64,000 bases of DNA. Source: Henckelia pumila. Taxonomy: Eukaryota; Streptophyta; Magnoliopsida; Lamiales; Gesneriaceae. The stretch spans positions 146,148,861 through 146,212,860 of the forward strand of contig NC_133122.1 in the NCBI RefSeq assembly GCF_033568475.1, read 5' to 3'. The position numbers were made by a program, and so were the translations under genes. The notes under the pieces were generated by a model, which saw only the letters and a list, made by a program, of their open reading frames with translations, did not search any database and was not told the origin of the DNA. This document shows positions 36,664 to 57,654 of the stretch, one piece after another (the first letter of the stretch is position 1; each line of letters opens with the position of its first letter).

Positions 36664-36794
36664 TAAATTGTAGTAATCCAGATCCCATTTTAAGATAATA
36701 ATATGTTAAACATGATTAAGAGTTAATATTTAACCAATTCCAGGGATTAGTCGAACTTCAGAATTAAGAATTGGACTTCCATTATTTGGGCCAG

Positions 36795-37090: not shown

Positions 37091-37108
37091 CTTGACCGAA
37101 AATTTGCC

Positions 37109-37116
37109 TATAAATA
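37109..37116 (+). promoter_or_regulatory. TATA box of the gypsy LTR
   Basis: cctataaatagg in U3, directly after the palindromic array. The equivalent in the 3' LTR is at 44680-44687. Confidence 0.75.
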
Positions 37117-38174
37117 GGGCTCATTCGGATTCTTTTTGAATTACGAATTCCGAGTTTCCTTCTTCAGTTATATAGTGTGAGATATACACTTGAGGGCCCT
37201 ATCGGTTTATAGTAAGGTTCTGGAATAACCAAAGCGTGGTTATAGTCATCCGGGATTAGCGACTCCAAAGGACTTACGATGGACGAAGATATGGTCCGGG
37301 AATCTATTTAAGTTTTAGGAGTACTTATTATATTAGCTTAGTTAAGGCTTATAGAATATGTGTAGTGATACGGTGAACTTTTGAATATAGGCTTGGAACC
37401 TAGGATCCTACTAGACTTGAACTAGCCTAGAGGTACATACACATTGACTGAGATTGCCAGCGAGTATACATGTTTATGTGTTGCATTTATTTGGCATTAT
37501 TATATGGCATGATATATGATTTACCGTTTTCCATATTCATATGTCATGTGCATATACACGTTGAGCCTATACCTGGTTATACCTGATTATAGAGCCGCTC
37601 AGCTCTATACTTGTTAGTCTGTCACTGAGAGTACCGCGACAGCGGGACATGTATGTCTGACTACTCTAATGTACTAGACGAGTGTGGTTGTACCCAAAGG
37701 TTGATCCGCGAGGTTATATCACTCATGTGGCGCCTGTACTGAGCATGACTTATCGGATGACCCTTTACCAGTCATCACGGTTGCATGCATCATATACATA
37801 TGTTTACTCATGTTTATGTACTGGGCGTTAGCGCTCACATCCTAGTTGTTATCTTGGATACCCTATTCCACGGGGCAGGTCGCAGGATGGACGGAGCCGG
37901 TAGTTCGAGGCAGGACTAGGGAGCAGGAGTCTTGAAGAGTTAGTTATACAGCGGGATTCGATATAGTTGTATAATGTTTACTTACTAGTCTTTTCGATTT
38001 GGTTGTATCACTACTTATAAATAAGCTTGAAACTTTTATACTAAGCTCATATGTAAATTATGGGTTCTGTTTCCGCACGTTTTTCTTTGATTAGTAATTA
38101 TTGCTTTTATTAAGCTTAATGTATGCTATTAGTTGTCAGTTAATAGGTGATACAATGCAGAGTTACTACATTTT

Positions 38175-38186
38175 TGGTATCAGAGC
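38175..38186 (+). other. Primer-binding site, initiator tRNA-Met type
   Basis: tggtatcagagc lies four bases after the 5' LTR and matches the 3' end of plant initiator tRNA-Met, the usual primer for gypsy elements. Confidence 0.9.
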
Positions 38187-38279
38187 ATGCTTAGATTTTG
38201 GGATTAGTACTTGGAATTTAGCCTAGTTTTGAGTAATTATTGCGCATTTGGGATTTTAATGTGCAAATCTTTTCAGATA

Positions 38280-39215
38280 ATGGCTGATGGAGGTAACGAG
38301 AGTCATGGTAGTGTTGGCAGAGAGATGGTCATCATCGTCAACATCGCCATCATCAAGAGGATCGACATCGTCCTCACGAGGGTAGACGTCGCTATACTAT
38401 CAATAAGTTTATGAAATTAGGACCGAAACTCTTGTTAGGAGGTGAGAATCCTGAGGAAGAAAGGAACTGGATAGCTAGGATCGAGAGTGCTTTTCGTGCT
38501 TTCGAGTGTTCTGAGGAGCAGAAGATGGAATTTCTAGAGTTTGTTCTAGATGGGCGTGCACGTTTATGGTGGGATGCCAAGGTAGCTCAGGCGGGTACTA
38601 AGAGAAGACAGGTGACTTGGGAGGATTTCCGTCAGCAGTTTTAGAAGTTATATTTTCCTCCAGCTGTTCGTCAGGCACGATCGATGGAGTTGCTTACTTT
38701 GAGGCAAGGATCTATGACTGTTGATGAATATCAGCAGTGATTCATTGATCTGCTACCTTACAGTCCCCATATCAATGAGAGTGATGCGTCCAAGTATGAT
38801 ATCTTCCTGCAAGGCTTGAATCAGGATATTTATTCACAGGATGTTGTCTGTGATGATCTAACATCTTACGAGACTCTGGTTAATCGGTGTCGTCAAGTGT
38901 AGAACAGCAATAGACGAGCATTGTTGATGATGCCAGGACAGCCTAGTGGATCTTTTGGGCCTAAGGCTCAATCTGTTGTGCAGTCTGGCACTACGCCTTC
39001 TTCTACTACTACTTCTTTTGGATCTCGTGGTTCACGAGGTATGTTCCGGTTTGGAAAGAAGAAGAAGAAATATGAATTTTGCAGTCACTGTGGTGGGAAT
39101 CATTCTGCAGCTTCTTGTCGAAAGGTTTCTGGTGCATGTTATATCTGAGGTGAGCAGGGACATCTACGGAGAGATTGTCCTCAGCGTATGGGAGCTGAGA
39201 GTGGATCGGGATCAT
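38280..39215 (+). pseudogene. gypsy gag remnant with zinc knuckle
   Basis: It starts MADGGNESHG at 38280, soon shifts frame, and continues with capsid text (LGPKLLLGGENPEEERNW, then RARLWWDAKV). A CCHC-type knuckle region appears near 39080-39180 (FCSHCGGNH). In-frame stops occur at about 38642, 38738, 38900 and 39146. The nucleocapsid would bind element RNA. Broken, so not functional. Confidence 0.85.
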
Positions 39216-39903
39216 AGATGGGATCTCAGGCTTCTACTCATTCACATCAGCAGCCAGCACCACCTAGTTCTTCTAGTTTCCGTCCACACACACAGGGGCA
39301 GGTGTTTGCTCTGTCTCAGGATCAGGCTACTGAGGAAAGCGATCACATGTTGGCAGGTACTTTTTTGTTATGCGGTATTCCTGCACTTGTTTTAATTGAT
39401 ACTGGAGCATTGTATTCCTTTATTTCTAACCATTTTGTTAAGAGACATAGATTACCTTATGTATCATTAGACCTGGATTTAGTTGTATCTACTCCGCTGG
39501 AGTAGAAGGTAGTAACTAAGCGTCTAGTGATGGGTTGCCTTCTAGAGTTTGAGGGTCACGTGTTGTCTGATAATCTGATGATTCTAGCGATGACAGATTT
39601 TGACTGTATTTTGGGAATAGATATACTGACATTGTATCACGCTACTGTGGATTGTTATCAGCATCTGATACAGTTTCATCCTGATGAGGGTGAGAGCTGG
39701 TCTTTTTATGGTGAGGGTGCGCGACCTCCGATGCCACTTGTTTCGGCTCTGAAGGCATGTCATGTCTTGGAGTCGGGTGGGGAGGGCTACCTCATTTATG
39801 CATTTGATATGTCCATGAGTAGTCAGGGTATTGATCAATTACCAGTTGTCAGCGAGTTTTCCGATGTATTCCCTAATGAGATTCCTGATTTTCCTCCGGT
39901 TTG
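39216..39903 (+). pseudogene. gypsy aspartic protease remnant
   Basis: The retropepsin active-site motif is seen as LIDTGALYSFIS at about 39394-39430. A stop at 39503 and another just after PDFPPV (39902) break the frame. It would process the polyprotein. Confidence 0.8.
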
Positions 39904-40800
39904 AGAGGTTGAATTTGGAATTGATCTAGTACCAGGAACAACGCCTATATCCCGAGCACATTATCGTCTGGCACCGTCAAAGATGAGGGAATTAAAATAG
40001 CAGTTGCAGGATCTGCTTGATAAGGGATATATTCGTCCGAGTGTTTCTCCGTGGGGAGCACCTGTGTTGTTTGTCAAGAAGAAGGATGAGTCGATGCGAT
40101 TATGTATTGATTACAGACAGCTGAATCGTGCCACCATCAAGAATAAGTATCCTTTACCACTGATTGATGATCTGTTCGATTAATTACAGGGTACTTCTGT
40201 CTACTCCAAGATAGATCTGAGATCTGGATATCGCCAGATGAGGGTATGAGACTCAGATATTTCTACGACTGCTTTTAGAACCAAATACGAGCATTATGAA
40301 TTTTTGGTGATGCCATTCGGTCTGACGAATGCACCGGCAGTCTTTATGAATATGATGAATCAGGTATTTCGAGAATATCTAGATAGGTTCGTCATCGTCT
40401 TCATTGATGATATTTTTGTCTATTCTCATGACAATGATGAGCATGCACAACATCTGAGAATTGTATTGCAGACGTTACGAGAGAAGCAGTTGTATGCGAA
40501 ATTGAGCAAGTGTAAATTTTGGCTTGATCGGGTAGTGTTTCTTGGTCATGTGATTTCTAGTAAAGGAATATCTGTTGATCCAAGTAATATAGAGGCAGTG
40601 CTGAACTGGTCTCGTCCGACGACGGTTGCTGAGTTTCGAAGTTTCTTGGGTCTAGCTGGTTATTACCGTCAGTTCATCGAGAATTTTACACAGTTGGCCA
40701 GACCTTTGACTCAGCTTACACGGAAAGATGTTTCCTTCATATGGTCCTCGGATTGTGAGGAGTCTTTTCACGAGCAGCGTAGACGTCTTACTACTGCACC
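39904..40800 (+). pseudogene. gypsy reverse transcriptase remnant
   Basis: RT motifs are in order: [19 protein letters not shown], then [17 protein letters not shown], then the catalytic FIDDIFVYS at about 40402-40430, then [10 protein letters not shown]. In-frame stops at about 39902, 40000, 40183 and 40247 precede the long intact stretch that starts at 40304. Confidence 0.9.
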
Positions 40801-41080
40801 TGTACTAGCTCTACCTTCTGGATCAGGAGGTTATGTTGTCTACATTGATGCCTCTGGTCAGGGATTAGGATGTGTTTTGACACAACATGGACATGTTATT
40901 GCCTATGATTCTCGACAGTTGAAGACGCATGAGAATAATTATCCAGTACATGATCTTGAGTTAGCCGCCATTGTATTTGTGCTCAAGATCTGGAGACATT
41001 ATCTTTATGATAAGAAATTTGATATATTTACGGATCACAAGAGTCTGAAATATTTATTCACCCAGACGGAGTTGAATATG

Positions 41081-42451
41081 TGACCGGCTAAATCGGTGTG
41101 ATATAAATCTACTGGCAAGCGTACCAGGTCAAGTAATAGTAAAGTGGACAGAGAGTCCAAGTATCGATCCCACAGGGACTGTTGTCAATTCTCAAGATTT
41201 AATTATTTTACTTAATCTAGACAAAATAATAGAAAATATTTTGAATTAAATAAAATAAGAATATAAAATAAAAACTGCTTAAGAAATACGAATGAAAATA
41301 ACTAAAGATAAAAATAATTAAAAAAAAATACAACCAAGACACACGTAGGTACCGAACAAATCACGTAACATGTAGTCGATTCAGGACTCAGATTTAATCT
41401 TAATTCACGGGAATTCTCCTAATTTGTTCAAAGGTCTATTTCTAGAACAATCAAACCTATTCAAATATTGATGAACTAATCTTTCGTAATTATAATCAAA
41501 TTTGAATGCATTAAATATTTATGAAAATTCAGTTTACACCCAAACCGCATAATGAAACCGAATTCTATTTCTAGTCAGTTTTACAATATGTTAATTATCA
41601 GAGTGATCAAAATCAAAACCTCCTCTGTACAAATTGGAATCGATTAACAAGCAAACAAATAACTGGCCAAGAAATTTGTAAGGCAAAGATAAATCTGATA
41701 ATCAATAAACTCAATTAAGTCTAAAAAATCCCAAACAAACATCCAAGTTTTCTACATGAATTTGTTCGGCCCAATCACGCCGTCTTGGTTGAAAATAAAC
41801 TACTCAATAATTAAAAATAATAATTCAAAAATAAAAATAAGAAGAAGAAAAGAAAGAAGAAATCTTCTCTCCCAAGCCTTGTAGCCACCTCCTCTTGCGT
41901 TGTCTGCGCTCTGGAGCTTCCGAAACCCTTAAAAATATGTTATATCTTGTATATATATGGTCCGGAACGCCTATCAGTTAATTTCCTCTCAAAACAAGGA
42001 TTTTTCGGAACACACATGACCCCCGAACACGCGCGCGCGCGCGCAGGAGTTAAAAACAGAGATCTGATCACGAAACTCGCGCGCGCGCGAGCTTGATTCT
42101 CGCGCGCGCGCAGTACAAGTTTTCTGCACCGAGCGATGATTTTCAAAAATTCATATCTCAAGATCTAGCCGTCGGATTGAGCTGAAATTTGGACAGAAGC
42201 TTCAAAACATCGTGAACTTCATTCTGACCGGTTAAGATCGGATTTGGATCTCTCAAAAATTAAATATGATTTTTAGATCAAGGCTGCTCCGTTATTCGCT
42301 CTTCAAAAATCTAATTTCCTACAAAATTAACCGGGGAAGTGAAATACACACATATGAACTAAAACACATAAAAACACATAAAAATAATATGAATTCACAC
42401 AAAATAGACATAAAAATAACATGAAATAATGCATACAAAATGCACTTATCA
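41081..42451 (-). mobile_element. Solo-LTR-like insertion, 1371 bp, inside RNase H
   Basis: The insertion begins TG and ends CA. It is flanked by ATATG at 41076-41080 and 42452-42456. On the minus strand it begins tgataagtgcattttg and has a TATA-like tatatatac near 41950-41958 followed by leader-like sequence, so I infer reverse orientation. No coding domains. It carries three CG-dinucleotide tracts at 42030-42111. Confidence 0.75.
42030..42111. repeat. Three (CG)n tracts in the inserted LTR
   Basis: Alternating CG runs of about 10-16 bp occur near 42030-42044, 42078-42090 and 42099-42111, standing out strongly from AT-rich surroundings. Confidence 0.85.
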
Positions 42452-42659
42452 ATATGCGACAGAGACGCTATATGGACTTCGTGAAAGATTATGACGGTAA
42501 GATCAAGTATCATCCAGGTTCTGCTAATCTTACTGCTGATGCTTGAGACGGCAGGTGAGACTTTCTGCAGTTCAGACTAGTGAATTATCTCATATGGTTC
42601 AGGAGTGTTGTTCACTGAGTTTTACACTCAAGCACAAGAAATAAAGAAATGGAATTCGT

Positions 42660-43610
42660 TTGTATACTATTTTATCTGAGCCAGCTTTTTATTCTCGGAT
42701 TAGAGAAGCTCAGATATCTGATGTTAAGACTCAGCGATTGTCACGTCTAGCCAATGGAGTTAATACATCTAGATTCTATTATCAGACAGATGGTTTATTG
42801 TCCTTATCGAATCGAGTGGTTATACCTGATGTTGCGGAGCTCAGGCATGATATTCTTTCTCAAGCTCACAGGAGCCGATTGTCAGTTCATCCTGGAAGTA
42901 TGAAAATGTATAAGGACTTGCGATCCAGATTCTGGTGGAAAGGGATGAAGCGAAGTGTATATCAATTTGTTTCTCGATGTTTGGTTTGTCAACAGGTCAA
43001 GGCTGAACACCGACGACCAGGTGGATTACTGCAGAACTTGAGATTCCCGAATGGAAGTGGGAGCACGTGACTATGGATTTTGTCACTCACTTGCCTATGA
43101 CTTTACGTCAGTGTGATGCTATCTGGGTCGTTGTTGACCGTTTGACGAAATCAACACATTTTATTCCTTACAATCGGGAGTATTCTTATGATCGCATGAC
43201 ACTCTTATATATCTAGAAGATAGTGTGATTGCATGGGATTCCAGTGAGCATAGTCAGTGATAGAGATCCGCGGTTTACCTCATGTTTCTGGGGCAGTTTT
43301 CAATAGGCGTTGGGTATCACTCTGAGTTTGAGCACTGCATATCATCCGGAGACTGATGGGCAGTCAAAGCGGACGATTCGTACATTGGAGAATATGCTAC
43401 GTTCTTCTGTCATGGATTTTGGTTTATCTTGGCAGGATCAGTTACCTTTGATCGAGTTCGCCTACAATAACAGTTATCATCACAGTATTGATATGGCATC
43501 TTTCAAGGCATTATATGGTCGAAGATGTCGTACTCCATTATTCTGGGATGAGATAGGAGAACGACAAGTTGAGGTCCCGAGTTGGTGCAGCAGATTGTAG
43601 ACAAGGTAGA
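42660..43610 (+). pseudogene. gypsy integrase remnant
   Basis: The H2C2 zinc-binding part is visible (HRSRLSVHPG, then CLVCQQVK at about 42970-43000). The catalytic core follows after a frameshift near 43065, with [17 protein letters not shown] and 'AYHPETDGQSKRTIRTLENM'. Stops near 43215, 43227 and 43303 interrupt it. Confidence 0.88.
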
Positions 43611-44120
43611 TTTGATGAAAAGGAGGATTAAAGTTGCTCAAGATCGGCAAGCCAGTTATGCTAATATTCACCGCAGGCCACTTCAGTTCGAGTCTGGTGA
43701 ATATGTGTTCTTACGAACGTCACCTTTCAGGAAGGTGATGAGATTTGGTTTGAAAGGCAAGTTATCACCTCGTTTCATTGAGCCTTTCTAGATACTGAAA
43801 AGATCGGAGATGTTTCATATCGTTTGGCGTTACCGCCATATCTTTCTAGTATACACGATATTTTTCATGTGTCGTTGCTTCGACAATACATAGCTGATGA
43901 GTCACATATTATCCAGCCTACTGACGTTCAGCTAGAACCAGATCTGTCTTATGTTGAACGATCACTCCGTATACTTGACAGGAAAGAGAAAGTTCTTCGG
44001 AACAAGACTATACCACTTGTGATGGTACAGTGGCAGCATCGAGGTGCCGAAGAAGCAACTTGGGAAACAGAGAGTCGTATGCAAGCGGAATATCCTGAGT
44101 TGTTTGCTTTGTACTTTTGA
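43611..44120 (+). pseudogene. gypsy integrase C-terminus with chromodomain-like end
   Basis: After a stop at about 43789 and a frame change, the frame 43824-44120 reads LPPYLSSIHDIFHVSLLRQY, then a chromodomain-like end with VQWQHRGAEEATWETESRM. This end module is the signature of chromoviruses, which use it in target choice. Confidence 0.85.
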
Positions 44121-44227
44121 TTACCATGTAAAGATGTAATTACAATTGTTGTAATAAAACATGATTTGATGTTTCATATTATTATCTTGATTTGTTTTTA
44201 GATTTTATTTCGCGAAGAAAATATCTA

Positions 44228-44240
44228 AAGGTGGGGAGAA
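44228..44240 (+). other. Polypurine tract
   Basis: aggtggggagaa directly precedes the 3' LTR, as expected for plus-strand priming. Confidence 0.85.
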
Positions 44241-45501
44241 TGAGTAACCCAGATCCCATTTTAAGATAATAATATGTTAAACATGATTAAGAGTTAGTAT
44301 TTAACCAATTCCAGGGATTAATCGGACTTCAGAATTAAGAATTGGACTTCCATTATTTGGGCCAGTTCGGACGGTCCGAAGAGGACTTCGGACGATCCAA
44401 ACTCAGCAACCCGGGGGCTCCGAAGAGGGCTTGTTGACTTCGGAGTTAAGGCAAGTTCGGACGGTCCGAACCAGGATCGGACGGCCCGAACTCCCTTATG
44501 CCAAGCAGGCAGGATTACTCAGCCATGGATTTTGACAAGTGTCATGCATAGGACACTTCGTACGACCCAAAGTGGCGATCGGACGGTCGGAACTCTACGT
44601 GTTCTGCATGCAGGCATTGAGCTGGATCGGATGATCCGAACCTGAGTTCGGAGGGTCCGAACTTGACCGGAAATTTTCCTATAAATAGGGCTCATTCGGA
44701 TTCATTTTGAATTACGAATTTCGAGTTTCCTTCTTCAGTTATATAGTGTGAGATATACACTTGAGGGCCTTATCGGTTTATAGTAAAATTCTGGAATAAC
44801 CAAGGCGTGGTTATAGTCATCCGGGACTAGCGACTCCAAAGGACTTACGACGGACGAAGGTATGGTTCGGGAATCTATTTAAGTTTTGGGAGTACTTATT
44901 AGCTTAGTTAAGGCTTATAGAATATGTGTAGTGATACGGTGAAATTTTGAATATAGGCTTGGTAGGATCCTACTAGACTTGAACTAGCCTAGAGGTACGT
45001 ACACATTGACTGAGATTGCCAGCGAGTATACATGTTTATGTGTTGCATTTATTTGGCATTATTATATGGCATGATATATGATTTGCCGCTTTCCATATTC
45101 ATATGTCATGTGCATATACACGTTGAGCCTATACCTTGTTATACCTGATTATAGAGCCGCTCAACTCTATACTTGTTACAGCACTCATGTGGTGCCTGTA
45201 CTGAGCATGACTTATCAGATGACTCTTTACCATTCATCACAGTTGCATGCATCATATACATATGTTTACTCATGTTTATGTACTGTTCGTTGGCGCTCAC
45301 GTCCTAGTTGTTATCTTGGACATCATATTCCACGGGGCAGGTCGCAGAATGGACAACTTGAAACTTTTGTACTAAGTTGATTTGTAAATTATGGGTTCCG
45401 TTTCCGCACGTTTTTCTCTGATCAGTAATTATTGCTTTTATTAAGCTTAATGTATGTTATTAATTGCCAGTTAGTAGGTGATTCAATGCAGGGTCACTAC
45501 A
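44241..45501 (+). repeat. 3' LTR of the gypsy element, 1261 bp
   Basis: Aligns with the 5' LTR from cagatcccatttt onward and ends CACTACA. It lacks two blocks present in the 5' copy: about 37617-37728 (missing near 45178) and about 37895-38025 (missing near 45356). Confidence 0.92.
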
Positions 45502-45506
45502 TAAAT

Positions 45507-46160: not shown

Positions 46161-46525
46161 CAGGGGTGAATTTATTGCATGGCGAAAAGAGGCACAGGCA
46201 CGCCCCCGCAAAAAAATTTTAAAGTCTTATTGGTATAAAGTATATTTTTATTCGTTTTTGTATATATACAATTTGGCCCCACATATGTCCATTCTACACA
46301 TTTGGTCCAGTGGTTTGCCTTCTAAATATTTATTTGGGCCAAGTTTAAATCTTGGGTTAATTGTCAATCACTCCCTAAACCAATTTTTAACTTATTTATA
46401 AATCCCTACATAAATAAAACTTACTTTCAACTCCCTGAAGAGAGAAACTTTTGTTTATAAATACCAATTATACCCTTATCTCTTAAAATTCATAAAAAAA
46501 ATAATAAAAAATAAAAAAATGAGAG

Positions 46526-49500
46526 AATGGATAATAATAAAAACAAAACCAATCCAAATAGTATATATATAAAAATTCAAATTAAAATCAAAGAACATAA
46601 ACCATATCATACACATGCTTACGTTGATACAGGAGCAAGTATGTGTTTAGAAAGCAAACATATACTTCCAAATCATTATTGGAAGAAATATGATAAATGA
46701 TTAAAAGTTCGAATATGTAACACCCGGTATTTTAAATACGTAAATCCGCATGCATAATTAGGATATTTAATTATTTAAATTTGTGATTTATAGGTTAAAT
46801 AATTATGTGAATTATTTGTGCATGATTTAATTTATTTTTAAGCATTTAACCCATAATTAGTGATTTTTATGATTTTTAGTATTTTAATTATTTTATCGCG
46901 TAAACGGGACCGTGGACGGACGAGATGACAACTTTCTAGCCAATTAATTTCATGAGCCTTTTTAGAGCCCAAAAATATTATTTTGAGTTTTATTGCCTCA
47001 AAATTTTTAGTATTTAATTTTATATAATTTTAGGAGTCCATTTTTATCCAAATTTAGTCATTTTAATGACTTTTAATTATTTTTAAAATTCCCTAAACTT
47101 GTAATTTCGGGATTTTTATATTTTTTTAACTTAAGTTATCAGATTTTAACTTTTATTTGGAGTTTTAAAATTCTATATTTTATATTTAAAACTTTTAATT
47201 ATCCTAAAACCTATTTTAATTATATTAAAAACCCAAAACCTAATCTACCCAAAAACCCAACCGATCACTCACACATTCAGCCGCCTCCCTCCCTAATATT
47301 CATCATCTTCTTCCTCGAACCACAGCCAAGGAGGTTCCATAGCCGAATTTCTTCGAAGTTTCAAGGTTGCTCGTCGTCCCGGAATCGTCCCACGCTCTTT
47401 TTTCTCTTCGTTTCCGGTGAAAGGCATGATTTCTTTCCCTATTTTTCGTGCCTATCAGATATTTTAGTGTGTGTATTGTGTATGCATCAAAAAAACTTTC
47501 AAGAATTTTCAGAAAAGTTTCGGCCATCATGAAATTTGTGGCTTGTAGTGTGAGTTTGATTGTCATGCTCATGTTTCTTAGCCATGGTGGTGTCTAGGCT
47601 GCTGGTCAAGGTCCCTAGGAGGTATAAGGTGAGTCTAGGCTCGATTGGCTCGGATGGTTCAAGCCAAAAGTGCCTAGAATTGGAGCTGGTTCGATCGGGC
47701 TCCCTTGGTGCGCAGGTTAGGGTTTTGAGAAGGGGGGGCTCGGCGAGGAGGTCCAGGTTGCATGGGGCTAGGGGCTGGGTCAGGTCAGGTCCGCCCAGAC
47801 GTGGGCTACGTCTGGGCGGCGGCGCTCCGGCCAGGGGCGGCCGGCAGCAGCCGAGAAGGGGTTAGGGCGACGGGTCTTAGGGTTTTCAGTTGGGTCCGGG
47901 TCGGGTCTGTGGTCCGGGTCGGGTCAGTAGGGTAGTGGGTCGGGTTAAGTTGGTCCGGGTCCGGGTTGGTGGGCCGGGCTCGAGTCTTTTTATTTTTAAA
48001 GTATTTTATGAATTAATTGGTTTTTGGGCCAATTAATTAGAAATAAAATTATTTGGACTTCCAAATAATTTTATTTGGGCTTTTAAAATTTTAATTAAGT
48101 TAGTCCATTAATTTTATGGGCTTTTGAGCCCATAAAAGTTATTGGGTCAGTCTTTGGGCTTTTGGGCTCATTGGGCCAGTTTAAGTTGTTATTGGGCCTA
48201 GAATGTTTTATGAGCTTTAAATTATTTTTATTGGGCTTAGAACAATTTTATTGGGCTTAAGTATGTTATTGGGCCAGATTTAAGTAATTGGGCTTGAGAG
48301 TTTAGGGCCAGCAGTCCAGTACAATCCATGAGAAATTTGCATGTGTCCTAATTATATATTTAATTATTTTTATGCATTGAAGTTATTTTAATATTTATAT
48401 GTTAGTAAGAAATTAAATTAAATATATATGAAGGACACACATTTTATTTAAGTACATGCATTCATGAAATAATTTTATGCATAATTAAATGTTTAAGGTT
48501 GAGCAATAATAAAATATTTTATGTTGGAAGTTGAAGTAGTGTGACAATTTAAGGGGGATTCGTCCCCATATGTGAACTATTGAAGGGCAGTTTACTGCCA
48601 ATTTAAGAGGTGATTCGTCACCGCCACGTACGTTGGTTTCCACGCTGATCAGTATTTAATGTATGATTTAAGGTTACACTACGGATACAACCATGCGATG
48701 TTAGAAATTTAACTGCTCAACAATGTTTATGTATTATGTTATTTAAGTTAATTTAAGTTATGTTTATGCCATGATATTTTTAAGCATGCTCATTCATGTA
48801 TATGTTATGTATTAGTATCAAAGTGATTTAAATTATTTTAAACCCTTGTTATGTTAGCATGTTGGGCCTCTAGGCTCACTACACTGGTATGGTGCAGGTG
48901 AGTTCGTAGAGGAGGATGTAGCTCCTACCGGCGGCGAGGACATATGAGCGGACATGCAGTGACCCCGTGACCGTGATAGATGTCTGAGTCACATTACATG
49001 TTTTAATTATGTCAGCATGTTACACTTTTTAATTATTTTTCAGTGGTTGTGGTTTTGAATATTTTATTTGAATATTTTCAGTGCATGCAAATTTTACATC
49101 ATTTTTCTTATGCAGTATTTTTAATTAAATGTTTGACTCAGATATTTATTTTATTTAAAGAATGCAATTTTTATTTAAGTTATTTATTTATTTATTTTAA
49201 ATCTTTTTATTCTGTGCATGTATGTATGGGCATATATGTGCATATTTTATTTAGTAAGTATATATATATATAAAAAAAAATTCCGCATATTTATTTATTA
49301 ATTATAGAGTTAGGGTCGTTTCAGAATAGGAGATGGAACAATAATCATGCTTGATACAGTAGCAGAAAAATTAAAAATAGAAATTGAGGAAACAAAAATT
49401 TGTAATACCCATTATATACCAATTAGAATCAGGAATGGACTTTATAATAGGAAATAACTTTTTAAGAGAATATCTTTCTTTTACACAATTTGAAAATCAC

Positions 49501-51347
49501 ATAACTTTAAACAAATGATCATCAATGATTTATATTCCTAAAATACGAACAGCATTTTGTGTAGAAAATGAAGGATTTACAAAGAATTTTCATAAACAAA
49601 ATACAAATCCAATAGAACTAAAAATAGAAAATATTTTAACAATTAATCATGAAAAAGAAATCATGAAAAAATTTCATGATATTTGTTCTGAAAATCCTCA
49701 GGACAAAATTAAGAAAAAAAAAAACAATTCATTGCTTCAATAAAACTTAAAGACCCTAATATCACAATCCGTGAAGCACCAAGAAGATGCAACATGGATG
49801 ATGTAAAAATATTCGAAAAAGAGGTTCAAGAATTACTAAAACTTAAGATAATCATCCCAAGCAAGAGTCCACACTCTTCACCAGCCTTTTATGTCAGTAA
49901 GAAAGACACTGATAAGAAAAAAAATGGTAATTGATTATCGAAAAATGAATAATGCAACAATTATGGATGGATATTACATCCCAAACAAGAATGATTTACT
50001 ATCTTATATAGGAGGAATGAAATATTTCTCCAGTTTAGATTGTAAATCAGGATTCTAGCAAATTCAGCTAGAACCACAAACACAATTACTTACATCATTC
50101 AGTTGTCCAAAAGGACAGTATCAATGGACTGTATTACCTTTCGAACTTAAAAAGCACCAGGTATCTTTCAAAGATATATGGATGAATCTTTTAAATCATA
50201 TGTAGATTTTTGTTGTGTTTATATAGATGACATATTAATTTATTCAAAAACACTAGATCAACATTATAAAGACCTCGTGACAGTATTATATATTTGTCAT
50301 AAAGATGGAATTATACTTTCTGAAAAGAAAGAACAATTGTTTAAAACAAAAATAAATTATTTAGGATTACAAATAGAAGATGGAAAACATTGTTTACAAC
50401 ATCATATACTTAAGAAAATTCACGATTTTTCTAGTGAAATCAAGGATAAAGATCAATTAAAAAGATTTTTAAAATTATTAACTTATTCTGGAAATTACAT
50501 TAAGAAACTTGCAGAAATCAGAAAACCTCTTCAGACAAAACTTAAACAAGACTATAAGTGAAAATGGTCTAAAGAGGATACTAATTATATTGACACTATT
50601 AAAAAGAAGATAATTAGTAATCTTCCCGAATTATATTTTCCTTCAAATAAAGACATAATAATAATCGAAACAGACGCCTCAGATGAATACTGAAGAGCAT
50701 GTTTAAAAGCTTATACATGAGAAAGAAATTTAGAAAAACTTACTAAAACAGCTACTAGGAATAATGAAGAATTATGTAATTATACATCAGGAACTTTTCA
50801 AGGTGCACAACTAAATTATCATTCAAATGAAAAAGAATTATTAGCTTTAATATATACAATTAGAAATTATGAGATTTATCTTATTTCTAAACCATTTTTA
50901 GTAAGAACGGATAATATGAATTTAACATATTTCAAGACAAGAAAAATATCAAGAAATGCAAGGAAAAATGCAGCAAGGTTAATTAGATGGCAATTGGAAT
51001 TGAACCATTATCAGTTCGAGATCCAGCATGTCAAAGGAACGGACAATTCATTACCCGACGCATTAACTAGAGAACTTCATCCAAATTATACTATCCGTAG
51101 TACCAGAATAACAAAAGAGATCCTAAGTGATCCAGAAAATGACTGAGAGTCATCCGAACATGCCTTAGAAAGCATGGGGAATATAAATTGATGAAATGAG
51201 ATTTATATTCAGAAACATGAATTACTCTATGAGTAAAATAATCAATCTAATGAAGATTGGTTCAATTATTGCAAAAGAATTCATAAATGCAATGATACGC
51301 ATAATAAAACTATCCGAATTACTCACGATAAAGAGTTAAATTTCTAA
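46526..51347 (+). pseudogene. Caulimovirid polymerase polyprotein, broken
   Basis: The protease motif AYVDTGASMC is at about 46622-46650. The gene is then interrupted by the solo LTR (46716-49323) and resumes at 49324. RT motifs include YIDDILIYSKT at about 50220-50250; RNase H includes HVKGTDNSLPDALTREL near 51030-51080. The frame probably ended at 51345-51347. Breaks: in-frame stops at 46698, 49516, 50056, 50559, 50691, 50718, 51144, 51189, 51192 and 51234, plus frameshifts near 49420, at an A-run near 49720, and near 49920 and 50150. It would process the polyprotein and copy pregenomic RNA into DNA; this copy cannot. Confidence 0.9.
46716..49323 (+). mobile_element. Solo LTR, 2608 bp, inside the viral protease
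   Basis: It begins TGTAACACCC and ends GTTTCA, and GAATA flanks both sides (46711-46715 and 49324-49328). No gag-pol domain, primer site or second LTR is present. A CT-rich leader-like stretch near 47265-47330 and the downstream GC-rich part (47620-47980) with many 'gggtc' words suggest plus orientation. The 101-residue frame at 47560 is composition-driven and not a credible gene. Confidence 0.85.
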
Positions 51348-51348
51348 C

Positions 51349-51354
<6 letters not shown>

Positions 51355-51382
<28 letters not shown>
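51355..51382. repeat. (TA)n microsatellite
   Basis: About 14 TA units immediately before the transactivator-like ORF of the viral insert. Confidence 0.9.
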
Positions 51383-51385
<3 letters not shown>

Positions 51386-51396
51386 TCTTGTGTAGG

Positions 51397-52509
51397 ATGG
51401 AGCAATTAGATCAATTAAAAGAACAATTGATTGACATAGATGAAGAAATTCAGATTCTTCAACAAAGGAAAAAGAATATAAATGGAAAAATTCAGAGGAT
51501 AAAAGAAAAGATGACAACCTCGTCATCATCATCCTCACCAAGAACACCAATCAAGTTAGCAACTCCATTTGACAAAATAATGGAGATGAATGAAAAACAA
51601 TCAGTGGTCACAGCCAACACAGATAACAAAGAAAAAGAAAAAGGAAAAGAAAAAGAAAAGAAGAAAGAACCGGTGGTCACAGCCAACACCGAGAAAAATG
51701 AAAAAGAAGAAAGGACGTTTAAAAGCGCCCTTGAAACAAGAGAAAGAAAGATGGTCAATCTGCGACCACAAAAACCAATTTTTGAAAAAACAAATTTTCC
51801 AAAAAAACTCAAAACTGAATTCTTTGAAACACTAAACTATTTGAGAATAGCCAAACCATCTGCAGGATCATGGCTACAAACTTGTGACACACAGAGCATA
51901 TCAAGAGCAAGAACACTACAAGGTGCTCCAGCGCATGAAGTCGCAAGATTCTTTTCAAATAGATTATTAAGCGGATTAGAAGTCAGTCCCAACAATCAAG
52001 AGATAGAACTATTTCCATATCAACTGAGAAATAATATTATCCAGTTCAAGAAAGCAGTCTTCAAGGACGAACCAGTGTTAACATTAAGTATTCATTCAAC
52101 CCTTCCAGATTGGGAAAATGACAAATTCTATCAGTCGATGATATACATTCAATGTCGAAAAAATAAAGACAAGTTTTTATTTGAAGGATCAAATGAAGAG
52201 AAACCAGTAATGGATATCTCAACACTTCCTGAGATAAGAATAAAGACATTGATTGACATGATCTCAAAGACGGGAAAGATTGATGGAAACTCAAAGGTTA
52301 AAATAAATTTTGTAACCAGTAAAATTTTATTAACCACTGGACACAAGGAGACAATCCAAAAGAAAGAACAAGTCATGTTAGCTCAATTCGAAGCTCCAAT
52401 CTATGAAGCAAGAGTTGACATGACCCGAGAAACCCAACAAATGTTATGTCAAAGACTAAGAACAATGATTTCCACTCACAAATGTGGACATGCCAACCCA
52501 TTCAGATAG
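51397..52509 (+). CDS. Caulimovirid transactivator/viroplasmin-like ORF
   Basis: An open frame of about 370 residues starting MEQLDQ (an in-frame ATG nine bases earlier is also possible). The N-terminus is a coiled coil, followed by a Ser/Lys/Glu-rich low-complexity stretch containing two 'VVTANT' repeats, then a folded region beginning near FFETLNYLRIAKP. Its place after the polymerase and before the large intergenic region is that of the inclusion-body protein/translational transactivator of caulimoviruses. Assignment rests mainly on position. A stop at 52507-52509 probably truncates it: another frame continues to 52608-52610 with a 7-residue repeat and an acidic end. Confidence 0.65.
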   Translation: MEQLDQLKEQLIDIDEEIQILQQRKKNINGKIQRIKEKMTTSSSSSSPRTPIKLATPFDKIMEMNEKQSVVTANTDNKEKEKGKEKEKKKEPVVTANTEKNEKEERTFKSALETRERKMVNLRPQKPIFEKTNFPKKLKTEFFETLNYLRIAKPSAGSWLQTCDTQSISRARTLQGAPAHEVARFFSNRLLSGLEVSPNNQEIELFPYQLRNNIIQFKKAVFKDEPVLTLSIHSTLPDWENDKFYQSMIYIQCRKNKDKFLFEGSNEEKPVMDISTLPEIRIKTLIDMISKTGKIDGNSKVKINFVTSKILLTTGHKETIQKKEQVMLAQFEAPIYEARVDMTRETQQMLCQRLRTMISTHKCGHANPFR

Positions 52510-52518
52510 AATAAGCAT

Positions 52519-52560
52519 CTGTCAAAGAGGACAAACCAGCTGTCAAAGAAGACAAACCAA
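52519..52560 (+). repeat. 21-bp tandem repeat at the ORF end
   Basis: ctgtcaaagaggacaaacca (52519) is followed directly by a copy with one internal change (52540). In the frame that stays open it encodes a doubled VKEDKPA-type unit. Confidence 0.85.
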
Positions 52561-52610
52561 TAAAGAAATGGTCCGAATGTACCAGTGATTCAGAAAGTGA
52601 CACAATGTAA

Positions 52611-53420
52611 AAACAAATAAAATCGTGGACCATACCACATGTGAAAGGCATCCACTCAGATGTAAAATGAGCTGTTTTCCATTATGTAGTATGGTCCCCC
52701 TCTTCCTTTATTTTACTACTGTATGCGTTTCTACATGCCTATAAAAAGAGATGTTTGTGTTGTAAATGGATAAGTGAAGTTTGAGTATCTCTCTCTTCTC
52801 AAGTTTCTTACAATCTGGTTCATACAAGACGTATGAAAACTATCAGAAACTAAGAAACATAAAATCAGAAACAAAAATAAGTCTTATGGCTAATAACTAA
52901 ACAAGCAGGGCGTAAGAAGGATAAGGTTGGAAACCAACCATTGAAGATTCATGGTTAGAGTAAACCTGGAGATCCATAGAGCAAGTATCAGTTGATCAAG
53001 TGATCGTTAAGGGAAAGCAAGGATTTGGCCTCTGCTCAAAACCAAGATTCATTCAAACAAGGTAACTTTCTAAATCTCTTGCAGCCCTTAATTTAAAAAA
53101 ATAGTCAAAATACATTAATCATGTCATCATCCTTTATAAGAAATGGAAGATTGATAATAAAAAACTGGTTTGAAATAGAAGATGATCATGAATATGATAC
53201 ATTTCATAAATATCATTTAAATACTTCTGATTTAACCATATTCGAATCAATTTATCAACTAAATTTTGTAATTATAACCTATGAATGGAACCAAACTAAT
53301 CTGAAAACATTTATCTGTTATAAATGAATCAGATCTGTAAAGCCATGAATGAGAAAATTCATAAGAATTTGAAGAATTCCGCAACCTGGTATCAGAGCGG
53401 TTAAATAAAGCAGATTATTA
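52611..53420 (+). promoter_or_regulatory. Large intergenic/leader region of the viral insert
   Basis: It holds the presumed pregenomic RNA promoter (TATA at 52740-52747 in gcctataaaaag), a long leader and the primer site at 53387-53398. An ORF of 68 codons (53121-53327) lies in the leader, and its frame runs on, through TGA codons at 53325, 53346 and 53370, across the primer site. Confidence 0.65.
53387..53398 (+). other. Viral primer-binding site, tRNA-Met type
   Basis: tggtatcagagc, the standard caulimovirid minus-strand primer site; the same 12 bases serve the gypsy element at 38175. Confidence 0.9.
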
Positions 53421-53924
53421 ATGCCTGGATTAACTTTAGATATTGAGATTAAAAATTTATTTGATAAAATAATCTTACTAAAAAATTTACGTCAAATAGA
53501 TCAATTATGGAATAAAATAAAAATCTCCAAACCTTTTATTTCAAAAATCATAAAAAAGAACATTTTTCAAGCAACTAGAAAATGATAATTCAAATTTCTG
53601 AATACGATGAAATTGAAGACATAACAATATGTTATGAATAAAAACAAACTTTGTTATCGAAATCCGATCAACAAAAATAAAATAATAAAAGTAACAATTT
53701 TTACTAAATGGAAAATGTATGAAAATACAAAAATGAATATCTTTAATTTATATTCTCAAAATATAAATTTTGATATAGAAAATTGTGAAAATAATTTGAA
53801 ACATCTTAAAAATTGTCAATCTTCAATTGATAGTTTCGAAGATTTTCAGAATTTATTAGAACAAATAGATTCAACAAAAAGGCTTTTAATAGCCTTAAGA
53901 AAATTAAGAAGTTCTATCATCTGT
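53421..53924 (+). pseudogene. Small leader ORFs before the movement protein
   Basis: An ORF beginning MPGLTLDIEI at 53421 runs about 54 codons. A second frame, 53634-53924, encodes 97 residues rich in Asn, Lys and Ile with predicted helices (CENNLKHLKNCQSSIDSFED). They may be pieces of one broken ORF. Their position matches small ORFs between primer site and movement protein in caulimo- and soymoviruses; function unknown. Confidence 0.5.
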
Positions 53925-53928
53925 TAAA

Positions 53929-54837
53929 ATGACAGAAGTAACAATTCCAAATCAAAATAGTCAGATTGATGAATCTGAAGATAACCAAGAGTATAATTTG
54001 AATATTATATTTAATCAGAATAAGTTTGCTGAGATACAGAAAACAGGGTTTTCTAATTCAAAAACAAATCTAATAGACCAACCAGGAATATTAAGCAAGA
54101 TTTCAAATTTTATTAATCCTAGAAAAAATTTAATTTATTATTCGATTCGTACAAAAGAACGATCTTGTAAAATAAATAACGAATCAAGGTCTAATACTCT
54201 GAAGTTATTAACAACTCAAGATATTGATACCATCATGGCAAAAGCCAGTAAAAAAGAACGATCTGAACTAAAATATGTTCACATTGAAGGAATCGAAATA
54301 ATAGTATCAGCTCACTACCGAGAAGGAATAGATAAACCAATTGAAATCACAGTTCGTGACAAAAGGATACGTAATCTTGAGGATTCTATCCTTGAAAAAA
54401 TTGAAGGAAACTTATGTTACAAAAAGATGAAATTTTGTATTTATCCACAATACAATATATCTCTTTTTGATAAAAACATAAATGACGTTTTAACATTAGA
54501 TTATTACTTTTATATAAATAATCTTATGTTAACAGGAAACCATCCGATCAATATAAACTATGTTGTCGGTTTAGCAATAAGTAATAATTCTTAAACAGGA
54601 ATAATTTCAACAAAACCAACTATTTCTGTTGAAAGAATATTTGAAAATATTACAAGAATTGAACACCCTCGAAAAGCATTTATTGAAGAAATAAATCCCT
54701 ATAAAATATGGAGTTCAGATGACCTCCAAATCACAAAACAGTCTGTACCAAGAAGATTATTATCATTTGCTAGAAATGATGAAGATATTCTTGAAAAGAT
54801 TGGAACCATGAATCAAAATATTCTTAAAATTAAATAA
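53929..54837 (+). pseudogene. Caulimovirid movement protein, one stop codon
   Basis: The frame starts MTEVTIPNQN and shows 30K-superfamily features typical of caulimovirid movement proteins (YVHIEGIEIIV, then HYREGIDKPIEITVRD at about residues 125-150). This class enlarges plasmodesmata for cell-to-cell spread. A TAA at 54592-54594 interrupts it at residue 222, and the same frame continues to a stop at 54835-54837. Confidence 0.82.
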
Positions 54838-54866
54838 GCTATTGTTAATGAATCAACCTCATCGCA

Positions 54867-55160
54867 ATGACGTCCTTAATAAAATTAGAAAAAGATCTAG
54901 GAGATTTAGAAAATAATATCAATAAGATCAATCTATCAATACAAGAATTAGAGAAAAATTTCAAAGAATATATTGATTTAGCAACGACTAGATTAATAAT
55001 TGAACAGAAAAGACATAGTAATGAAATATTAAACTATCTTAAAAAAGTTCTTCCAATAGATAAAGGAAAAAGGAAAATGGAAGAAGAACCACCATTCAAA
55101 ATTGAATCATGGTATAGAAATCCCCTTAGTTATGGCAAACATAAGTATGGAGATGTTTAG
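54867..55160 (+). CDS. Small coiled-coil ORF, virion-associated-protein-like
   Basis: 97 residues starting MTSLIKLEKDLGDLENN. The first 65 residues have heptad-like spacing; the end has a basic DKGKRKMEEE patch. Size, coiled coil and position between movement and coat proteins match caulimovirid virion-associated proteins. It overlaps the next ORF at 55102-55160 if that starts upstream. Confidence 0.6.
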   Translation: MTSLIKLEKDLGDLENNINKINLSIQELEKNFKEYIDLATTRLIIEQKRHSNEILNYLKKVLPIDKGKRKMEEEPPFKIESWYRNPLSYGKHKYGDV

Positions 55161-56538
55161 TGAAACCGACTCATCTGATTTTGAACAAATAGGAGTAAAT
55201 ACAGAAGAATTATATCATTCACATCAGGACTCAGAACAATACAGAGATATGGATATTTCAGAATTAGAATCTGAAGATGATTCTAGACCACGATTAAATC
55301 TACGAACGAATGTAGAAGGTAGTGGTGGAAGAGATGATGAAGAATTTAAATATAACAGAGACCAATACTCTGGATCTTATAAAGATGTTAGAGATATTCT
55401 TAGAGAATCAAAAACATCAGGATTTGTGAAACAGAATATCTTAGATTTAGGTTGTTCAACAACCAAAGAAAGAAAATCAAAGATAGATCATTGGGCAAAT
55501 GAACTATCAGTACAAATTCAATTAACACCATTATTAGACAAAAGTGAGAATATTCAAGTTTTAACTCATGGGATGATAAAAATGACACTGATAGGAGCAG
55601 TAAGAACTTGGGCTGAAAACCTAATAATTACTAATCTACCACAAGGAATGACAGGACATCGATATTTCGAACTATTTGTTGATACCTTGTACCAAGAATT
55701 TTTAGGAGTTTCTAATAATGACGCTAATTTAGTAGCCAAAAATATAGAACAAAATAGAGCAATTTTTATTCTGGATAATATAAAATTATGTAATCTATGT
55801 TATCTAGAAGAATTAATATGTGATTATGAAAAAAACTATTATCAGTTAATAGATGCTGATAAAAAAGAGCATTATAAATTAAGTATTTTTAATAAAATAC
55901 CTAATATACCAATAAATAGTAAAGATGAATTCTTAACTAGTGCTTATGCCAAAACACTAGGAGGAGCTATTAAATTTATTAAAGACGTTATAACAAAGAA
56001 ATGTCATGAAGTAACATTAAATAAAAGAATATCCAAATCTTACAAACAAAACAATAAACTTTGTTGTGACAAAATGGAATTCACAGTAAAAGAATACGGT
56101 TGTAAAACAAACATGTCACACAAACATTTAAAACGACAGAAACATAATAAATTAAATAAACCTTATAAATCTTTTAATAGAAAATTTATTCCCTATAAGA
56201 AAAAGAAATTTAGAAGAAATTTCTTCAGAAAACTTTATAAAAGAAAATTTTATAAAAAGTTTGATAATAAAAAATCACCTTGCCCAAAAGGTAAAGGAAA
56301 GAACTGCACATGTTGGTTGTGCAATGAAGAAGGTCATTATGCAAATAAATGTCCAAAACGAAACGAAAAAAAAAATAAAGTTAAACTTCTTGAAGAAATA
56401 TATACTATTGGATTTTATCCAGTAGAAACAATTGAATTTTCATCTGACGATGAAAATATTTATTATCTTGATGAATCAAGTGAATCAGATTTTGAATCCG
56501 ATTCCACATTTGATAATTCAAGAAATAATAATGATTAA
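55102..56538 (+). CDS. Caulimovirid coat protein, intact frame
   Basis: 478 residues from 55102, or 468 from the in-frame ATG at 55132 (MANISMEMF). Acidic N-terminus, central capsid-like region (RTWAENLIITNLPQGM), a very basic stretch, then a CCHC zinc knuckle CWLCNEEGHYANKC, and an acidic Asp/Ser-rich end. Basic stretch, knuckle and acidic tail in this order are diagnostic of caulimovirid coat proteins. The frame has no stop, unlike the polymerase. Confidence 0.88.
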   Translation: MNHGIEIPLVMANISMEMFSETDSSDFEQIGVNTEELYHSHQDSEQYRDMDISELESEDDSRPRLNLRTNVEGSGGRDDEEFKYNRDQYSGSYKDVRDILRESKTSGFVKQNILDLGCSTTKERKSKIDHWANELSVQIQLTPLLDKSENIQVLTHGMIKMTLIGAVRTWAENLIITNLPQGMTGHRYFELFVDTLYQEFLGVSNNDANLVAKNIEQNRAIFILDNIKLCNLCYLEELICDYEKNYYQLIDADKKEHYKLSIFNKIPNIPINSKDEFLTSAYAKTLGGAIKFIKDVITKKCHEVTLNKRISKSYKQNNKLCCDKMEFTVKEYGCKTNMSHKHLKRQKHNKLNKPYKSFNRKFIPYKKKKFRRNFFRKLYKRKFYKKFDNKKSPCPKGKGKNCTCWLCNEEGHYANKCPKRNEKKNKVKLLEEIYTIGFYPVETIEFSSDDENIYYLDESSESDFESDSTFDNSRNNND

Positions 56539-57654
56539 AATAAAGACAAGGGCATTTTCGAAAAGACAAATATAGGGAGTAAATTGAAACTTATGTTTGA
56601 TTTAAGGAATTATCTACGAGTTGCTTTAAATCTTCTTGCATGCCATCATTCACCTTTCTTCTTATTTTTTATTTTTTATTTTTTATGTTTATTATATATT
56701 ACTCACTTTAGCACATTTAATTTAAAATCCTCTTACCATTTTTTTTTCTAAATTTGAAACGTTAGCACTTTTTATTTTAAGCTCTCTTGCAACTTTTTAT
56801 TTTTTGTTATTTGAAAAATTACAATCTTTTATTTAAAACAATAAAATGCGATTAATTTTTTAATTTCATAAATTTCTTATTTAACCCATCTTCAATACAC
56901 AATATCTTGATCAATTTTCCACATATTTTAAGTGATTTTAACTCTTGGGATTTTGGGGGTTTTTGGTAGCTAATAATCTCATTGTTTTAAAACCAAGTTT
57001 GATAAATTTTCGGTTTTTCTTAACATCAAAATTTGGTTAAGTTTTATCATTTGATTTCGTAACATCTTTAATCTATTTCATCATGTTTTTGTTTTGTTCT
57101 ATGATGTGTTTTATTTTCTTATTTCATCTTGATTTTGGATCTTGTTAAATTATTTGCAAGTTGCGATACTTTTTTCTAATTGAAAAAATTACACATCATC
57201 GACTTGGACAAAAAACAAATTCATATTCACTTGTGCCTGCAAAAAATACAATAAAAGCTTAATTTATTGAAGGAATGATTGCATATTACTTTTTATTATT
57301 ATTATTTTGTTAATATATAGAAATGAAACATCTTTGTAAATGGAAATTGTGACTCTCGCTTAACATGTTTTTATTGGCAATAGATGGAAAAAAAACTAAT
57401 TATAAAATATAAAGAGACAACATCATCTTATATGTACAACGATAATTTTTTTATACATAATCGATAATATCTTTTAATGAAATTATGTTTTTCTCTTTTG
57501 GTAATATATTAATTTAACTTTAGGTATTATATATATTTATTTTTTTAAAATATTGTATCCATGTTATTGAAAGTTACACAAACATATAATAATTATTTTT
57601 TTCATTTTATATGCAGACACGCCCCCTGAACATGAAGTCCTGGATCCGCCCCTA
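56539..57654. other. Right arm of the hAT-like element, non-coding
   Basis: AT-rich with no ORF. The first 100 bp show inverted similarity to about 46395-46490 on the other side of the viral insert. It ends at the hAT-type terminus. Confidence 0.5.

What the first reader, a model, noticed from the sequence alone, without database searches (positions are those of the whole stretch)
46526..56538. Single full-length, circularly permuted caulimovirid genome
Each viral gene is present once, in one orientation, but the linear order starts at the polymerase and ends with the coat protein. The circular genome was therefore opened at the coat/polymerase junction, not at the primer site. Many endogenous caulimovirids are rearranged fragments, so a full permuted unit is informative about how it integrated, and the virus may be an undescribed lineage.
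Basis: partly seen in the sequence, partly recalled or inferred. Interest (0 to 1): 0.75.

Follow-up and report, generated by a model that had tools for sequence, protein, structure and literature searches.

The report
Plant virus genome with transposon ends
A complete plant DNA-virus genome in this chromosome looks not like a chance insertion but like one of hundreds of copies with the same transposon-like ends and a 9-base target duplication, left by a virus lineage that appears to have been functional while it carried those ends.

Summary
The host assembly (885 Mb) holds 288 matches to the right end and 307 to the left end. The other copies whose ends were reached stop at the same two places: 87 bp after CP (19 of 19 loci) and 173 bp before pol (12 of 20 regions; the other 8 did not reach it). 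The ends are imperfect inverted repeats (GGG...CCC) flanked by 9-bp target-site duplications: 7 of 10 paired copies match 9/9, the window copy 9/9. A paralogue of the interrupted host repeat shows the empty site. This is transposon-type insertion, best matched by Mutator-like elements. In 40 CP copies, mutations private to one copy look neutral, those shared by three or more show strong purifying selection; MP and pol agree. Between two subfamilies the terminal segments changed about five times less than synonymous sites. So the ends belonged to a functional virus lineage. Best reading: a pararetrovirus-transposon composite, like Teratorn in principle. Transposase, circular form and present activity are inferred.

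The parts
46345..46353 (.). left copy of 9-bp target-site duplication TTAAATCTT
46354..46383 (+). left terminal inverted repeat, outer 30 nt (GGGTTAATTG...)
   Evidence: 19-22 of 30 identical to the right end in 10 copies; 307 matches of the 26-nt terminus in the genome, reversed-pattern control 0
46354..46526 (+). left terminal segment outside the genes (173 bp)
   Evidence: shared start of 12 of 20 copies at window 46341-46354 by blastn, at GGG by eye; 5 near-fixed differences in 156 sites between subfamilies
46527..46715 (+). pol, first part: start and aspartic protease N-terminal half (DTGAS), broken
   Evidence: Peptidase_A3 E 4.4e-13, profile 1-47
46716..49323 (+). solo LTR of a Ty3-type retrotransposon nested in the protease, TSD GAATA at 46711-46715 and 49324-49328
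   Evidence: point uninterrupted in 12 of 12 copies that reach it; LTR family recurs next to Ty3 material
49324..51146 (+). pol, rest: protease C-terminal half, RT (YIDD), RNase H; several in-frame stops and frame changes
   Evidence: Peptidase_A3 profile 74-117, RVT_1, RT_RNaseH; ordered pieces on PDB 8r0s
51397..52509 (+). open ORF of 370 codons in the position of the transactivator (TAV)
   Evidence: position only; no homologue found
52740..52746 (+). TATA-like box of the intergenic region
   Evidence: read from sequence
53387..53398 (+). tRNA-Met primer binding site, exact 12 nt
53625..53927 (+). small ORF upstream of MP, function unknown
53929..54837 (+). movement protein, broken by one in-frame stop
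   Evidence: PF01107 E 2.9e-33; 72% identical to P0004
54867..55160 (+). ORF in the position of the virion-associated protein, coiled-coil-like
   Evidence: position; weak designed-coiled-coil hits only
55132..56538 (+). coat protein, open, CCHC knuckle
   Evidence: BFVD matches to caulimovirid coat proteins
56539..56625 (+). right terminal segment (87 bp) with the right inverted repeat at its outer end
   Evidence: common end of 19 of 19 other CP loci; 2 near-fixed differences in 87 sites between subfamilies
56626..56634 (.). right copy of 9-bp target-site duplication TTAAATCTT
46161..57654 (.). host hAT-like non-autonomous transposon (46161-46353 and 56635-57654) interrupted by the viral element; not part of it

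Best explanation
The locus is one insertion of a high-copy composite element: a complete caulimovirid genome whose two ends are inverted terminal segments of a DNA transposon, most likely of the Mutator-like (MULE) superfamily. Shown here: the same termini in the other copies whose ends were reached, imperfect terminal inverted repeats, 9-bp target-site duplications, an empty site, hundreds of matching ends, neutral decay of single copies, and purifying selection on CP, MP and pol in the lineages behind the copies, with the terminal segments conserved as well. Inferred: in the circular viral form the two terminal segments lie back to back between CP and pol, about 260 bp; a host MULE transposase acting in trans recognises them and inserts the genome, opened at exactly that point. 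The apparent circular permutation is therefore set by where the transposon ends sit in the viral circle. Each inserted copy then decays; here it gained a solo LTR, stops and frameshifts. Also inferred: that the source was an infectious virus, because the movement protein was under selection too.
For: Termini: CP loci fetched from the assembly stop sharing sequence at window 56623-56635 in 19 of 19 (L017 and L027 are one flank on two contigs) and differ beyond; left end at the same place in 12 of 20 regions. Right 22-mer 288 matches, left 26-mer 307 matches at up to 2 mismatches, reversed-pattern controls 0 and 0. Of 100 + 100 listed exact ends, 43 left ends have a right end on the same strand within 30 kb, 19 of these at 7650-7800 bp, against 1 opposite-strand pair. 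TSD: 9/9 in 7 of 10 pairs, 8/9 and 7/9 in two, one inside (TA)n; 9 is the best length and random 9-mers match 9/9 at 4.5e-5. TIR: 19-22 of 30 identical, above every one of 2000 shuffles in 9 of 10 copies. Empty site: paralogue L087. Selection on CP: private N 221 S 48, shared by 3 or more N 56 S 60, neutral expectation N/S 4.41; 24 copies chosen by terminus alone: private ratio to neutral 0.97, shared 0.16; MP shared 0.15, pol part shared 0.15; within subfamilies, shared changes other than C>T/G>A N 12 S 20 against private N 151 S 38, p 2.8e-6. Ends: 7 differences in 243 sites against 38 in 265 synonymous sites, Fisher 3e-6. MULE transposase domain in the same genome: 150 of 150 scored matches over cut-off, 1188 first-look candidates.
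Against: No transposase is linked to these ends; no autonomous partner was found, and 30 of 30 right-end loci carry the virus, though these were chosen by the virus-side terminus. The inverted repeat is short and imperfect; the window copy's own two ends are not significantly alike (20 against a shuffle maximum of 25.5), and over the whole segments the score is borderline (0, 2 and 0 of 1000 shuffles reach it in three copies). No circular junction was found in the genome (exact pattern). Variants shared by 2 or by 3-5 copies are only mildly constrained (0.68 and 0.62); most in the 3-5 class are C>T/G>A and may be recurrent, but some spread of already dead copies is not excluded; 4 shared variants are stops. 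The first 20 loci were chosen by CP score, and the 30 right-end loci all come from one chromosome. The left-end comparison of subfamilies rests on 3 and 7 loci.
Confidence: 0.72

Rival explanations
1. Passive Pack-MULE-type capture: a Mutator-like transposon once enclosed a virus genome and only the transposase multiplied it; the viral genes did nothing.
For: Transposon-type termini and 9-bp duplications; no transposase inside; private mutations neutral; low-frequency shared variants only mildly constrained; some shared stops.
Against: Deep shared variants show N/S 0.05-0.16 of neutral in CP, 0.15 in MP and pol, dN/dS 0.055 between subfamilies that share both ends. A dead passenger should show neutral change on every branch after capture.
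Confidence: 0.13
2. Mixed mode: a live virus founded each subfamily, but most copies within a subfamily come from DNA transposition of resident copies by a transposase in trans.
For: Copies within subfamilies are close (mean CP distance 0.030 and 0.021) and many shared variants are deamination-type.
Against: Non-deamination variants shared within subfamilies still show few amino-acid changes (N 12, S 20), though the numbers are small.
Confidence: 0.3
3. An intracellular retroelement without infection: it replicates by its own RT and integrates with a borrowed transposase, never leaving the cell lineage.
For: High copy number and clean single-unit insertions.
Against: The movement protein is under purifying selection in shared variants (N 9, S 18), which only cell-to-cell spread should require.
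Confidence: 0.1
4. One reading: one random insertion of a circle broken at the CP/pol junction by end joining.
For: Gene order as stated.
Against: Identical termini, inverted repeats and 9-bp duplications in independent copies; window TSD 9/9.
Confidence: 0.02
5. The 9-bp staggered insertion is made by an enzyme other than a MULE transposase that recognises the virus's own ends.
For: No partner transposase was linked to the ends; the inverted repeat is imperfect.
Against: The terminal segments hold no room for an enzyme gene, and in the passages seen of PMC10741241 only Mutator elements are given 7-12 bp duplications.
Confidence: 0.1

Closest known systems
Endogenous caulimovirids (EPRVs), Caulimoviridae
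   Same: Same genes, order around the circle, primer site and size; RT piece 73 of 133 residues identical to PDB 8r0s; coat protein matches caulimovirid coat proteins, Lamium leaf distortion virus first.
   Different: Known insertions are described as end-joining or filler events near TA repeats, tandem or rearranged, mechanism speculative (PMC10377300 section 3.1). Here single units with the same inverted ends and a 9-bp duplication. No TAV homologue found; no ORF seen in the position of the aphid factor.
Teratorn (herpesvirus-piggyBac composite in fish; PMC10175614, passages)
   Same: A whole virus genome bounded by DNA-transposon ends and multiplied in the host genome.
   Different: Pararetrovirus of about 7.4 kb, Mutator-like 9-bp duplication, plant host, and no transposase inside the element; selection on viral genes measured here.
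Pack-MULEs / Mutator-like elements (PMC10741241, passages)
   Same: TIR and TSD of 7-12 bp; transposase domains abundant in this genome.
   Different: Carries a complete virus genome under past purifying selection instead of a gene fragment; TIR short and imperfect.
Primulina tabacum protein P0004 (LOC142521795)
   Same: Movement protein 72% identical over 97% of the query.
   Different: Only the protein was seen; whether that copy has such ends is unknown.

Membership tests
Caulimoviridae | aspartic protease, RT and RNase H of caulimovirid type | tested here: met
   Peptidase_A3 4.4e-13 and 2.4e-13, RVT_1, RT_RNaseH; closer to 8r0s than to Ty3, 153 against 58 bits
Caulimoviridae | movement protein PF01107 | tested here: met
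   E 2.9e-33
Caulimoviridae | coat protein with CCHC knuckle | tested here: met
   PF22909 E 0.0016, below the curated cut-off (19.2 against 27 bits), CCHC likewise just below; relatives P0001-P0003 carry PF22909; BFVD: 14 hits at E <= 1e-3, 13 named, those caulimovirid by my own knowledge, model of low confidence
Caulimoviridae | tRNA-Met primer site | tested here: met
   exact 12-mer at 53387
Caulimoviridae | genome of 7.1-9.8 kbp (PMC7660458 abstract, search listing) | tested here: met
   7659 bp with ends, about 7.4 kb without
Caulimoviridae | genus placement by RT-RNase H phylogeny | not tested
   no reference sequences could be fetched; viral contigs and genome-contig scans found none
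Mutator-like transposon (MULE) | TSD of 7-12 bp | tested here: met
   9 bp, 9/9 in 7 of 10 pairs plus the window copy
Mutator-like transposon (MULE) | terminal inverted repeats, usually long | tested here: inconclusive
   19-22 of 30 nt; longer stretch borderline; window's own ends not significant
Mutator-like transposon (MULE) | own transposase or a partner with the same ends | tested here: inconclusive
   none recognised among the element's ORFs of the window; transposases abundant in the genome but none linked to these ends
Teratorn-like composite | whole virus genome inside DNA-transposon ends | tested here: met
Teratorn-like composite | herpesvirus with piggyBac transposase inside | tested here: not met
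   caulimovirid genes, no transposase recognised
Pack-MULE | captured sequence is a passive passenger | tested here: not met
   shared variants under purifying selection

The most novel reading that the evidence does not exclude
A pararetrovirus lineage has turned into an integrating virus by carrying a DNA transposon's ends inside its circular genome: the circle with back-to-back ends acts like an excised transposon circle, a host Mutator-like transposase inserts it with a 9-bp duplication, and resident copies could be cut out again as complete circles. Integration would then be a regular, selected part of this virus's life, which no member of Caulimoviridae is known to have, and the genome would hold hundreds of dated insertions of a virus that lived as both virus and transposon.
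Probability: 0.4. Interest if true: 0.95.

Novelty: new variant of a known kind. Interest (0 to 1): 0.88.

Why it matters
How caulimovirids enter plant chromosomes is described as speculative (PMC10377300, section 3.1). Here the junctions are exact and repeated hundreds of times, so the mechanism becomes testable: ends, duplication length, target preference and partner transposase. It would be a reverse-transcribing plant virus that uses DNA-transposon ends, a parallel to Teratorn in another kind of virus, and a dense fossil series in which neutral decay after insertion and selection before it can be told apart. It also warns that annotation by gene content or LTRs alone misses the borders of such elements. 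None of the nine literature searches I made listed a caulimovirid with inverted ends and a target duplication; most subscription papers are not in that library.

Tried and rejected
Integration of a broken circle at the CP/pol junction: rejected by shared termini and TSDs. Tandem array cut short: rejected, no second copy in the window, no exact head-to-tail junction. hAT capture: I first took 46161/57654 (TIR-like, 8-bp duplication 7/8) for the ends of the mobile unit; the genome showed that this is an older host repeat into which the element went. A second virus at the right border: 56548-56625 translates to something like the TAV-position ORF (score 68, 0 of 200 shuffles), but the other copies score 45-59, so part of it is private to this copy; unresolved, not used. 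Larger elements (11.7-25 kb between ends) as autonomous versions: 5 of 6 middle slices match Ty3-type retrotransposon or the solo-LTR family, the sixth matched nothing. TAV by fold: model too poor. Relatives in IMG/VR and in bacterial genomes: none. No dating beyond private-substitution load (median 0.0046 per CP site, window 0.0028), since no rate was measured.

Uneven decay: by my hand count of 9 lesions in the window's pol against none in CP, VAP and TAV-position ORF, chance is about 4e-6; but in other copies CP decays too (30 of 40 have a stop), and the frame-breaking differences in the pol stretch examined are private to single copies, 3 to the window and 3 to one or two others. Left open.
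Full report
What is in the window. Between 46354 and 56625 on the + strand lies a complete caulimovirid genome: protease, RT and RNase H, a 370-codon ORF in the place of TAV, an intergenic region with a TATA-like box and an exact tRNA-Met primer site, a small ORF, the movement protein, a VAP-position ORF and the coat protein. The RT piece is identical to PDB 8r0s (caulimovirus enzyme, name recalled) at 73 of 133 residues and to Ty3 at 43 of 128. MP is 72% identical to one Primulina tabacum protein, CP 28-31% to three database proteins, two of them from Asteraceae by their names. The TAV-position ORF has no homologue in the searches made, so that name rests on position.

The protease profile is split, positions 1-47 before and 74-117 after a 2608-bp block that starts TG, ends CA and is flanked by GAATA. 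In 12 of the 12 other copies that reach this point the sequence runs through without it. It is a later solo LTR. The rest of pol has several in-frame stops and frame changes, MP one stop; CP and the TAV-position ORF are open in this copy.

Not one insertion but hundreds. The genome tool was busy most of the time but answered eight searches. A CP search of the own assembly (884.7 Mb, 133 contigs) scored 91 matches of 3516 first-look candidates, the others at 92-96% identity. I fetched 20 loci. Apart from the window itself all 19 stop sharing sequence at the same place, window 56623-56635 by blastn, 87 bp after the CP stop, and then differ; two of the 19 are one flank on two contigs. I then fetched 20 regions where the left end should lie: 12 start sharing sequence at one place, GGG at window 46354; 8 did not contain the left end (7 without match, 1 with only LTR-type matches).

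Transposon-type insertion. Of the 12, 10 could be paired with their right flank: target duplications are 9/9 in 7, 8/9 and 7/9 in two, and one lies in a TA repeat where it cannot be read. Nine is the best length; random 9-mers of the window agree 9/9 at a rate of 4.5e-5. The window copy has TTAAATCTT on both sides. The outer 30 nt of the two ends are inverted and 19-22 identical, above all 2000 shuffles in 9 of 10 copies; the window copy's own ends alone would not have shown it, and over the whole terminal segments the likeness is borderline. The right terminus (22 nt) matches 288 times and the left (26 nt) 307 times at up to two mismatches, with none for the reversed patterns. Among the 100 and 100 exact ends listed, 43 left ends have a right end on the same strand within 30 kb; 19 of these span 7650-7800 bp; longer ones contain nested Ty3-type material in 5 of 6 slices looked at. 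The 30 right-end loci fetched, chosen by the terminus and all from one chromosome, carry the viral CP in 30 of 30. The host DNA around the window copy is itself a hAT-like repeat (46161-57654) with some 40 scored relatives; one of four relatives fetched, L087, runs clearly across the insertion point with a single copy of the duplicated target, a second is compatible, two are too diverged there.

The virus was alive. I projected CP of 49 loci on the window's codons (L027 left out as a duplicate); 43 covered 95%, 40 were distinct. Changes seen in one copy only: 221 amino-acid, 48 silent, as expected without selection (4.41). Changes shared by three or more: 56 and 60. The 60 variants shared by exactly two copies (45 and 15) were set aside there and are between. 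With only the 24 copies chosen by terminus the ratios to neutral are 0.97 (private) and 0.16 (shared); in the 19 chosen by CP score 0.89 and 0.09; MP in 18 copies 1.39 and 0.15; the first 348 codons of pol in 12 copies 1.15 and 0.15, where stops per copy are 0, 0, 1 (six times), 2, 3, 4, 4. By number of carriers the ratio falls from 1.04 (one) over 0.68, 0.62 and 0.16 to 0.05 (12 or more); in the 3-5 class 51 of 56 are C>T/G>A, so many may be repeated methylation damage. Copies fall in two subfamilies, 13 with the window and 27 others; between them CP has 38 silent differences in 265 sites and 9 others in 1139, dN/dS 0.055, while the terminal segments have 5 in 156 and 2 in 87 (Fisher for 7/243 against 38/265 is 3e-6). 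Within subfamilies, shared changes other than C>T/G>A are 12 and 20 against 151 and 38 private (p 2.8e-6). Both subfamilies have the ends and the 9-bp duplications. So ends and genes evolved together under constraint.

Mechanism. Shown: precise, repeated, TIR-and-TSD insertion of whole units; selection before and neutrality after insertion. Inferred: the enzyme is a Mutator-like transposase in trans. Of the plant TIR superfamilies whose duplication length I saw in PMC10741241 passages, only Mutator has 7-12 bp (hAT 8, CACTA 3, Tc1/Mariner 2, Ginger 4-6), and this genome is rich in the transposase domain (150 of 150 scored over cut-off). That MULE-related bacterial elements use circles is recalled and was not checked. 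Not shown: a circle, the partner enzyme, or that each copy came from an infecting virus and not from a resident copy.

Known or new. Reviews call caulimovirid integration speculative, by break repair or with retrotransposon help (PMC10377300, abstract, passages and section 3.1 seen). PMC10741241 section 3.1.4 says known EPRVs lack LTRs and have borders that are hard to define. PMC13308828 and PMC4241990 were seen in passages, PMC12440569 (Troyka, abstract and passages) is no parallel. Teratorn (PMC10175614, passages) is the nearest principle: virus plus DNA transposon. Hence new variant of a known kind: another virus class, another transposon type, no transposase inside.

Host.

Noticed in passing
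46161-46353 and 56635-57654: Host hAT-like non-autonomous transposon (ends YAGGGGYGRAT, 8-bp duplication 7/8) that the viral element interrupts; at least 20 of 58 match rows of its right part end at the same base.
   Followed up: yes
36672-45502: Ty3-type LTR retrotransposon with LTR pair at 90-95% identity and an exact primer-site 12-mer at 38175; ends about 660 bp left of the hAT-like repeat.
   Followed up: partly
56548-56625: Right terminal segment translates in the CP frame to 26 residues like residues 126-152 of the TAV-position ORF (score 68, 0 of 200 shuffles; 45-59 in ten other copies). Chance or a real origin of the end is open.
   Followed up: partly
51354-51382: A (TA)14.5 microsatellite lies inside the viral unit just before the TAV-position ORF.
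   Followed up: no
L074 (C1:156423349): A right end is followed directly by viral sequence from another copy (window 54002 onward): one copy seems nested in another.
   Followed up: no
46527-51146: In the window copy pol carries all but one of the counted lesions while CP, VAP and the TAV-position ORF are open; other copies do not show CP to be spared.
   Followed up: partly
21703-23643: Exons that by eye look like a type-B response regulator gene; recalled motif, not searched.
   Followed up: no
32877-33380 (-): ORF that by eye looks like the start of a prolylcarboxypeptidase-like gene; not searched.
   Followed up: no
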